Origin: Cryptococcus deneoformans JEC21
Lineage: Eukaryota > Basidiomycota > Tremellomycetes > Tremellales > Cryptococcaceae
DNA: 64,000 bases
NCBI RefSeq assembly: GCF_000091045.1
Contig: NC_006687.1
Coordinates: 777,001 to 841,000, forward strand
Direction of reading: 5' to 3'
In this document: one piece after another, positions 37,445 through 37,990 of the stretch
Position numbering within the stretch: the stretch's first letter is position 1
Layout of the letters: each line of letters opens with the position of its first letter
Made by a program: the position numbers and the translations under genes
Notes under the pieces: generated by a model
The model's database searches: none
What the model saw: the letters and a program-made list of their open reading frames with translations, nothing else
Told to the model about the DNA's origin: nothing

Positions 37445-37488
37445 GATGGATATGGTGTAAAAAAGGTAGGTGCTAGTTTCGAAAAAAG
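37445..37488 (-). promoter_or_regulatory. D leader with candidate self-priming PBS
   Basis: On the minus strand the LTR is followed by CTTTTTT and then CGAAACTAGCA (plus-strand 37481-37471). This 11-mer is exactly complementary to TGCTAGTTTCG in the LTR (plus-strand 37638-37628), about 60 nt downstream of a TATATATATA tract (37699-37709). No TGG-type tRNA PBS exists. The equivalent pair in G has a different but still matching sequence. Self-priming is inferred from pairing and position. Confidence 0.6.
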
Positions 37489-37990
37489 TGTAGGCACTGG
37501 GGGTGCCTCACTGCGTTCGGTTGGCGTTCGAGAAGGATGGGCGTTCGTGGTATAGGTCTAGAGGGCGTTCGGATGCGTTCGAGGAAGCGTTCGGTGTTTG
37601 TTTATAGTTATAGTGGTCTACTGGATGCGAAACTAGCAATGGTTGATATGCATGAGTTTCGCTTAGAGAAAGAGAAAACTATAACTATGTATGAGATCTA
37701 TATATATATGTATGTGTGGATGTATGCAGAAACAAACAGAAGTCCATCGAAAAAAAGGGGCAGAGATCCGGCGAAGTCCGCCGCCGCGTTTCGGCAGCAA
37801 TTGCCGGTCCTATGCATGAGAATAAAATATCATGCATAGGATAAGGCCGGACAGAGCTCGATGCCGCGTTTCGGCGAAGTCCGAAAAACGCGTTTCGGCA
37901 TCAAATCTCACTTACCAACATCGACCAATGCATAGGAATAAATCCTACCATATGGTGAGAATGAATGGTGGTAAGGGCTCTGCACTTACA
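37489..37990 (-). repeat. 5' LTR of D
   Basis: 502 bp, one difference from the 3' LTR. Six GCGTTCG units occur on the plus strand between about 37513 and 37595 (U5). Confidence 0.95.

What the first reader, a model, noticed from the sequence alone, without database searches (positions are those of the whole stretch)
37471..37638. Self-priming pair in D that co-varies with the pair in G
D has CGAAACTAGCA seven bases inside the 5' LTR and its exact 11-nt complement TGCTAGTTTCG inside the LTR. G has CAAACTAGC nine bases in (58184-58192) and its complement GCTAGTTTG (58335-58343). Both lie at the same place, downstream of a TATA-like tract, and the C/G difference is compensated on both sides. There is no tRNA-type PBS. 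Tf1 of fission yeast is known to prime with the first 11 nt of its own RNA; the 11-nt length and geometry match.
Basis: partly seen in the sequence, partly recalled or inferred. Interest (0 to 1): 0.75.

Follow-up and report, generated by a model that had tools for sequence, protein, structure and literature searches.

The report
Retrotransposon that primes its own copying
A jumping element in a yeast chromosome appears to start copying itself by folding the end of its own RNA onto a matching site inside the element instead of borrowing a cellular tRNA, a trick known from fission yeast that had been left open for this element family.

Summary
D and G each carry an exact antiparallel match between the LTR, downstream of a TATA motif, and the leader just behind the 5' LTR (11 bp in D, 9 bp in G). 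The host is Cryptococcus deneoformans; D and G are two subfamilies of one Ty3/gypsy family, most likely Tcn3 (possibly Tcn5). A 2020 review says that only 'potentially novel' priming had been proposed for Tcn2-5.

In a near-exact genome search, 22 of 23 D-type leaders lying behind an R segment keep all 11 pairs and one keeps 10. Unconstrained RNA folding pairs the predicted 5' end with the leader site. No tRNA match was found. The D/G covariation is real, but it is one event, and primer copying would produce it anyway.

Added here: the site lies behind a 7-9 nt C+T spacer. One 3' LTR carries spacer and primer copy on its outer end, a possible unprocessed cDNA end. An inverted copy of the primer sits just upstream in U3, also in Tcn1 with another sequence, so the 3' copy of the primer in the RNA could be locked in a hairpin. 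RNA start, cleavage and priming are inferred. Known mechanism, new variant, moderate interest.

The parts
37489..37990 (-). 5' LTR of element D (502 bp); its partner 3' LTR is 27004-27505
37628..37638 (-). D: LTR segment TGCTAGTTTCG, predicted self-primer near the RNA 5' end
37482..37488 (-). D: spacer C + T6 between the LTR end and the leader site
37471..37481 (-). D: leader site CGAAACTAGCA, predicted primer-binding site
37655..37662 (-). D: U3 arm GCGAAACT, inverted copy of the primer (18/5000 by shuffling)
37680..37683 (-). D: TATA starting 45 nt before the primer
37488..37511 (-). D: U5 hairpin GTGAGGCAC-CCCCA-GTGCCTaCAC at the LTR end
58202..58689 (-). 5' LTR of element G (488 bp)
58335..58343 (-). 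G: LTR segment GCTAGTTTG, predicted self-primer
58193..58201 (-). G: spacer C + T8
58184..58192 (-). G: leader site CAAACTAGC
58360..58366 (-). G: U3 arm GCAAACT, inverted copy of the primer (40/5000 by shuffling)
58201..58224 (-). G: U5 hairpin
12852..12865 (-). Comparison, Tcn1-like element: LTR segment GAAGATCAATATTT (14 nt)
12581..12594 (-). Comparison, Tcn1-like element: leader site AAATATTGATCTTC, 2 nt behind the LTR
12874..12882 (-). Comparison, Tcn1-like element: U3 arm TTGATCTTC (39/5000 by shuffling)

Best explanation
D and G are two subfamilies of a Cryptococcus Ty3/gypsy family (most likely Tcn3) that starts minus-strand DNA synthesis with its own RNA. The 5' region of the RNA, with UGCUAGUUUCG (D) or GCUAGUUUG (G), pairs with the complementary leader site, which lies behind a U5 hairpin and a C-U6..8 spacer. 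The paired 5' segment is cut at its 3' end (in Tf1 by RNase H between bases 11 and 12) and extended through the U tract into U5. Plus-strand synthesis later copies the primer and so regenerates the leader site, which keeps both sides complementary. Shown from sequence: complementarity, position, retention in genome copies, predicted fold, no tRNA match in the lists obtained, one 3' LTR bearing spacer plus primer copy. Inferred: RNA start, cleavage, use as primer.
For: Exact pairs at the same place in D and G, rare in shuffles (4/5000 and 66/5000; 1/1000 and 29/1000). 87 genome hits of the 11-mer against 6 for the reversed pattern; 23 primer/leader pairs 157-158 bp apart, one of them the L025 case. 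Fold without constraint pairs primer and site, P 0.73-1.0 in D and 0.49-1.0 in G. U5 hairpin with paired base changes among Tcn3-, Tcn4- and Tcn5-like LTRs. Tcn1-like element has its own 14-nt pair, and self-priming was proposed for Tcn1 (PMC7175516, passage). L025: 3' LTR + spacer + CGAAACTAGCA on the outside. No TGG in the leaders; no overlap, by eye, of the 87 hits with the 58 tRNA places returned.
Against: No mapped RNA 5' end. G alone is weak (66/5000; 29/1000). Covariation is one event. Copies are young, so retention is weak evidence: 74 of 384 11-column windows of the D LTR alignment are also invariant. The leader search was near-exact, so it favours intact sites. The Tcn4- and Tcn5-like elements share the C+T spacer but show no significant pair (142/1000 and 147/1000). 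L025 is a single rearranged copy. tRNA list is incomplete (63 of 556 candidates scored).
Confidence: 0.82

Rival explanations
1. A variant of self-priming (overlapping with the best explanation): the RNA starts farther upstream, from the TATATATA tract at -64 to -70, so it contains both the U3 arm and the primer. A 5' hairpin must open before the primer pairs with the leader, and the primer is cut from an internal position.
For: A stronger TATA tract lies at -64 to -70 in D and -59 to -73 in G; with 35-40 bp spacing (PMC9604717) the start would lie at or before the U3 arm. The U3/R region folds strongly (z -5.3 in D, -4.8 in G).
Against: The Tcn1-like element has a TATATAAAG box at -45, and D and G have TATA at -45 and -43, giving a common start between arm and primer. 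The L025 junction agrees with a start at or upstream of -6, which does not separate the two.
Confidence: 0.15
2. The pair is a real RNA duplex with another job (packaging, dimer formation, translation control), and priming uses a fragment of a tRNA or another RNA not found here.
For: Half-tRNA and other primers are known in LTR elements (PMC6317226, passages). The tRNA list is incomplete.
Against: The leader site is directly where a primer site is expected; the 11-mer has 87 genome hits, 42 in listed D-type LTRs and 29 more in primer/leader pairs, and the one hit read outside the clusters is not a tRNA by ARAGORN.
Confidence: 0.1
3. The match is chance, kept only because the copies are recent.
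For: Copies are 95-99% alike; G alone reaches 66/5000.
Against: 4/5000 for D before position is considered; the D/G difference is matched on both sides; the same layout with an unrelated sequence occurs in the Tcn1-like element.
Confidence: 0.03

Closest known systems
Tf1/Tf2 of Schizosaccharomyces pombe (self-primed, Tf1/sushi group)
   Same: Leader site complementary to the start of the own RNA; 11 nt paired in D; a U5 stem-loop next to it (Tf1 facts from passages of PMC7175516 and PMC10085805 and from a reference title).
   Different: Site displaced by a 7-9 nt C+T spacer; RNA start probably 3-10 nt upstream of the paired segment; inverted primer copy in U3. Whether Tf1 has such an arm or spacer was not checked.
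Tcn1 of Cryptococcus
   Same: Same host and window; LTR/leader pair (14 nt), TATA at -45/-43, U3 arm; self-priming proposed earlier (PMC7175516).
   Different: Unrelated pair sequence, 2-nt spacer without T tract, longer LTR (about 540 bp).
Tj1 of Schizosaccharomyces japonicus
   Same: Primer site complementary to the 5' end of the own RNA, inferred from sequence, in a centromere-clustered element (PMC4600332, passages).
   Different: Shown to transpose in an assay; D and G were not tested.

Membership tests
Self-primed LTR retrotransposons (Tf1 type) | Leader site behind the 5' LTR complementary to a segment of the own LTR near the RNA start | tested here: met
   11 bp in D, 9 bp in G
Self-primed LTR retrotransposons (Tf1 type) | No tRNA-type primer site | tested here: met
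   No TGG in either leader; 11-mer hits do not overlap the 58 tRNA places returned, an incomplete list
Self-primed LTR retrotransposons (Tf1 type) | Primer is exactly the first 11 nt of the RNA | tested here: inconclusive
   TATA spacing and L025 suggest a start 3-10 nt further upstream
Self-primed LTR retrotransposons (Tf1 type) | Leader RNA folds with primer:site duplex and further duplexes ('pretzel') | tested here: inconclusive
   Primer duplex and U5 hairpin are predicted; the two flanking LTR/leader duplexes of Tf1 were not seen in the minimum-energy folds
Self-primed LTR retrotransposons (Tf1 type) | RNase H cut releasing the primer; cDNA start at the site | not testable with these tools
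   needs RNA and cDNA
Chromoviruses / Tf1-sushi clade | Chromodomain at the integrase C-terminus | tested here: inconclusive
   No Pfam chromodomain at E <= 0.1 in the D tail or G, but none in the Tcn1-like copy either; only a weak SH3_Tf2-1 match below its cut-off
Chromoviruses / Tf1-sushi clade | RT/integrase phylogeny | not tested
   no tree made
Ty3/gypsy | Protease-RT-RNase H-integrase order | tested here: met
Tcn3 | Identity with the published Tcn3 sequence | tested here: inconclusive
   Only gene order and copy numbers against Table 5 of PMC2677675; reported TCN3 LTR of 606 bp and 4.7-kb frame fits the 47475-52190 family in size at least as well

The most novel reading that the evidence does not exclude
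Self-priming elements of Cryptococcus carry an inverted copy of the primer in U3 just upstream of the RNA start (D, G and, with an unrelated sequence, the Tcn1-like element). The predicted start lies in the loop, so the 5' copy of the primer is free to pair with the leader, while the 3' LTR copy in the same RNA is locked in a hairpin: a built-in device that lets only the 5' end act as primer.
Probability: 0.25. Interest if true: 0.62.

Novelty: new variant of a known kind. Interest (0 to 1): 0.48.

Why it matters
A 2020 review says that Tcn1 was proposed to self-prime and that Tcn2-5 might have novel priming mechanisms (PMC7175516, passage). For one of these families the sequence points to self-priming with a displaced site, which one mapping of RNA 5' ends and one of cDNA ends could settle. 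If the family is Tcn3, it is also one reported mobile in C. neoformans in 2026 (PMC12810828, passages). The U3 arm raises the question how a self-primed RNA keeps its second, 3' copy of the primer away from the leader site.

Tried and rejected
Covariation in more copies: two further leader variants were found; C1:995699 has lost the R segment and C2:857753 (L080) is decayed there, so neither tests it. L025: I first read ATGGTT as primer copy only; the target has it natively, so it is at most a microhomology. Target duplication of the L025 element: its flanks differ and its 5' LTR is broken. Tcn4- and Tcn5-like elements: no significant pair; the best Tcn4 site (41973-41984) is close to the homologous place but only 142/1000. 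Tcn2 LTR and leader were not located in the window. Viral contigs: no relative. Genome contigs and plasmid or phage collections were not searched. A 13-nt tRNA positive control for the copia element Tcn6 failed: 18 places, ARAGORN found no tRNA in the four that were read. Levin 1995, Atwood-Moore 2006, Lin and Levin 1997 and Goodwin and Poulter 2001 are not held, so what was proposed for Tcn2-5 is known here only through a review. The statement that no Tcn3 self-primer was found in print rests on searches of the held library, and on passages, not whole texts.

Full report
Where it is. The window is G000:C5:777001-841000 of a 19,051,922-bp genome in 14 contigs. The closest protein relative (90% identity) is from Cryptococcus deneoformans B-3501A. 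The window is a nest of LTR elements, as described for Cryptococcus centromeres (PMC7175516, passages).

What D and G are. Both encode protease, RT, RNase H and integrase in Ty3/gypsy order. Table 5 of PMC2677675 (passage) lists on JEC21 chromosome 5, in order, Tcn5, Tcn1, Tcn4, Tcn6, Tcn2, Tcn6, Tcn3. If the two copia elements (18276-22385, 28876-32985) are the two Tcn6, Tcn3 falls to the D/G group and Tcn5 to the family at 2857-6952 and 47475-52190. Copy numbers partly agree: C1 has two near-identical D/G pol copies (plus an 80% partial one), two Tcn4-like ones and none of the 47475-52190 family, where the table has Tcn3 twice, Tcn4 twice and no Tcn5. They also disagree: C11 has one D/G pol match for two Tcn3 entries, C13 a Tcn4-like copy without an entry, and many D/G copies have no entry. 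Moreover, TCN3 of C. neoformans is reported with 606-bp LTRs and a 4.7-kb frame (PMC12810828, passage); D and G have LTRs of 502 and 488 bp, and the 47475-52190 family (LTR about 590 bp, 1571 aa) fits that description at least as well. So D/G is most likely Tcn3, possibly Tcn5; both are among Tcn2-5. D is interrupted by a copia element (28345-33250) and its LTR flanks show no target duplication.

The pair. In D the leader reads C-T6-CGAAACTAGCA and the LTR holds TGCTAGTTTCG 140-150 nt before its end. In G it is C-T8-CAAACTAGC against GCTAGTTTG. Shuffled LTRs reach 11 nt in 4 of 5000 for D and 9 nt or more in 66 of 5000 for G. Duplex energies: D 1/1000, G 29/1000, Tcn1-like 0/1000, Tcn4-like 142/1000, Tcn5-like 147/1000, Tcn6 952/1000. 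So the weaker G pair rests largely on its homology with D.

Genome-wide. TGCTAGTTTCG occurs 87 times against 6 for the reversed pattern. Of the 87, 42 lie in listed D-type LTRs, 29 more belong to a primer/leader pair and 16 to neither. Of these 16, C5:689372 lies outside the clusters and ARAGORN finds no tRNA in the 161 bases around it; C7:890482 is in an LTR that was read (L003); the other 14 lie within about 10 kb of other copies of the family and were not read. There are 23 pairs 157-158 bp apart: 22 ordinary leaders and L025. The leader search (one mismatch at most, so biased to intact sites) returned 25 places: these 23, C7:890629 with 10 of 11 pairs, and C1:995699 whose LTR has lost the R segment. 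In the loci found by LTR alignment, which does not select for the site, 16 of 17 ordinary D rows with a leader have the full site and one has 10 of 11; 7 of 7 G rows have the 9-nt site. G leaders in the pattern search: 8 places with T7, all alike over the letters shown; the window copy has T8. The primer is unchanged in 42 of 42 D rows and intact in 18 of 19 G rows, the exception (L050) having an inserted base. The copies are young, though: 74 of 384 windows of 11 columns in D and 34 of 457 windows of 9 in G are also invariant.

No tRNA fit. Neither leader holds TGG. By eye, none of the 87 hits coincides with the 58 tRNA places; that list is a lower bound (63 of 556 candidates scored). My own positive control, a tRNA match for Tcn6, failed.

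Covariation. D and G differ by TTTCG/CGAAA against TTTG/CAAA, matched on both sides. It is one event. In a self-primed element the plus strand copies the primer and so rewrites the leader site in each cycle; matching is then expected without independent compensatory mutations (inference).

Fold. RNA from the primer to the gag start, folded without constraint, pairs the 5' end with the leader site (pair probabilities 0.73-1.0 in D, 0.49-1.0 in G) and forms a U5 hairpin at the LTR end. That hairpin recurs with paired base changes: AGGCAC/GTGCCT in D and G, AGACAC/GTGTCT in the Tcn4-like LTR and L080, AACA/TGTT in the Tcn5-like LTR. That Tf1 needs a structure like the retroviral U5-IR stem-loop is the title of a paper seen in reference lists.

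A possible fossil. L025 (C1:969702-970223) is a 3' LTR by position: the purine-rich tract and the internal 3' end lie upstream. Its outer end continues CTTTTTTCGAAACTAGCA and then enters an antisense copy of the family's pol gene whose native sequence is ATGGTTTTCTCC. ATGGTT is also what a longer primer copy would read (the LTR has AACCAT before TGC), an agreement expected once in 4096. The simplest reading is an unprocessed cDNA end, the primer copied for 17 nt or more, joined at a 6-nt microhomology. Against it: one copy, a broken 5' LTR and different flanks; an 11-nt copy plus coincidence, or joining of a leader fragment, is not excluded. [quoted passage not shown]

Where the RNA starts. 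In Cryptococcus the TATA box, when present, lies 35-40 bp upstream of the main start (PMC9604717, passage citing work in preparation; from which end of the box is not said). TATA begins at -45 in D, -43 in G and -45/-43 in the Tcn1-like element, which predicts a start about 3-10 nt before the paired segment; L025 agrees. TATA tracts farther up (-64 to -70 in D, -59 to -73 in G, -67 in Tcn1) keep an upstream start possible.

The U3 arm. Just upstream lies an inverted copy of the primer: GCGAAACT in D (18/5000), GCAAACT in G (40/5000), TTGATCTTC in the Tcn1-like element (39/5000). The U3/R region folds with z -5.3 in D and -4.8 in G, but only -1.2 in the Tcn1-like element. The predicted start falls between arm and primer in D and G and mostly so in the Tcn1-like element. 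Then the 5' end of the RNA has the free primer, while the 3' LTR copy would be held in a hairpin. This is inference; an upstream start would spoil it.

Literature. PMC7175516 (passages): Tcn1 proposed to self-prime, Tcn2-5 potentially novel. PMC10085805, PMC4600332, PMC6317226, PMC2864245 and PMC5445492 (passages) describe self-priming elsewhere; PMC2864245 found no primer site in a spikemoss Tcn1 relative with a T-rich leader. Searches listed no held paper that I found to describe a Tcn3 self-primer; the 2001 source paper is not held.

Verdict. Self-priming of D and G at 0.82: a known mechanism in a family where it had been left open, with a displaced site and a U3 primer-copy arm as variant features.

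Noticed in passing
window 42020-42060 and 52193-52226: The Tcn4-like and Tcn5-like elements share with D and G the U5 hairpin at the LTR end followed by C plus a T tract, although no significant primer pair was found for them.
   Followed up: partly
window 41973-41984 with 42048-42060: Tcn4-like element: GTGCATGTTTTG in the LTR can pair with CAAAACAACGCAC behind the C+T6 spacer (11 pairs with a small internal loop); 142/1000 by shuffling, so only a lead.
   Followed up: partly
L014 1502-2634 (G000:C4 near 233516-234650): An LTR plus about 66 nt of leader is followed directly by another LTR of the same family: a tandem LTR-leader-LTR arrangement.
   Followed up: no
window 18021-18035: The leader of the copia element Tcn6 (GGTTATGAGCC) resembles a half-tRNA initiator-Met site (recalled); a 13-nt search found 18 places and no tRNA in the four read.
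   Followed up: partly
L080 (G000:C2:857100-857900): Old decayed relative with the spacer, the site CAAAACTAGC and a U5 hairpin with paired base changes, while its R segment is decayed.
   Followed up: partly
window 27004-27505 and 37489-37990: D's LTRs are 99.8% identical but have different flanks without a 5-bp duplication, unlike several single LTRs elsewhere (for example L005, L008, L021, L022) that have one.
   Followed up: no
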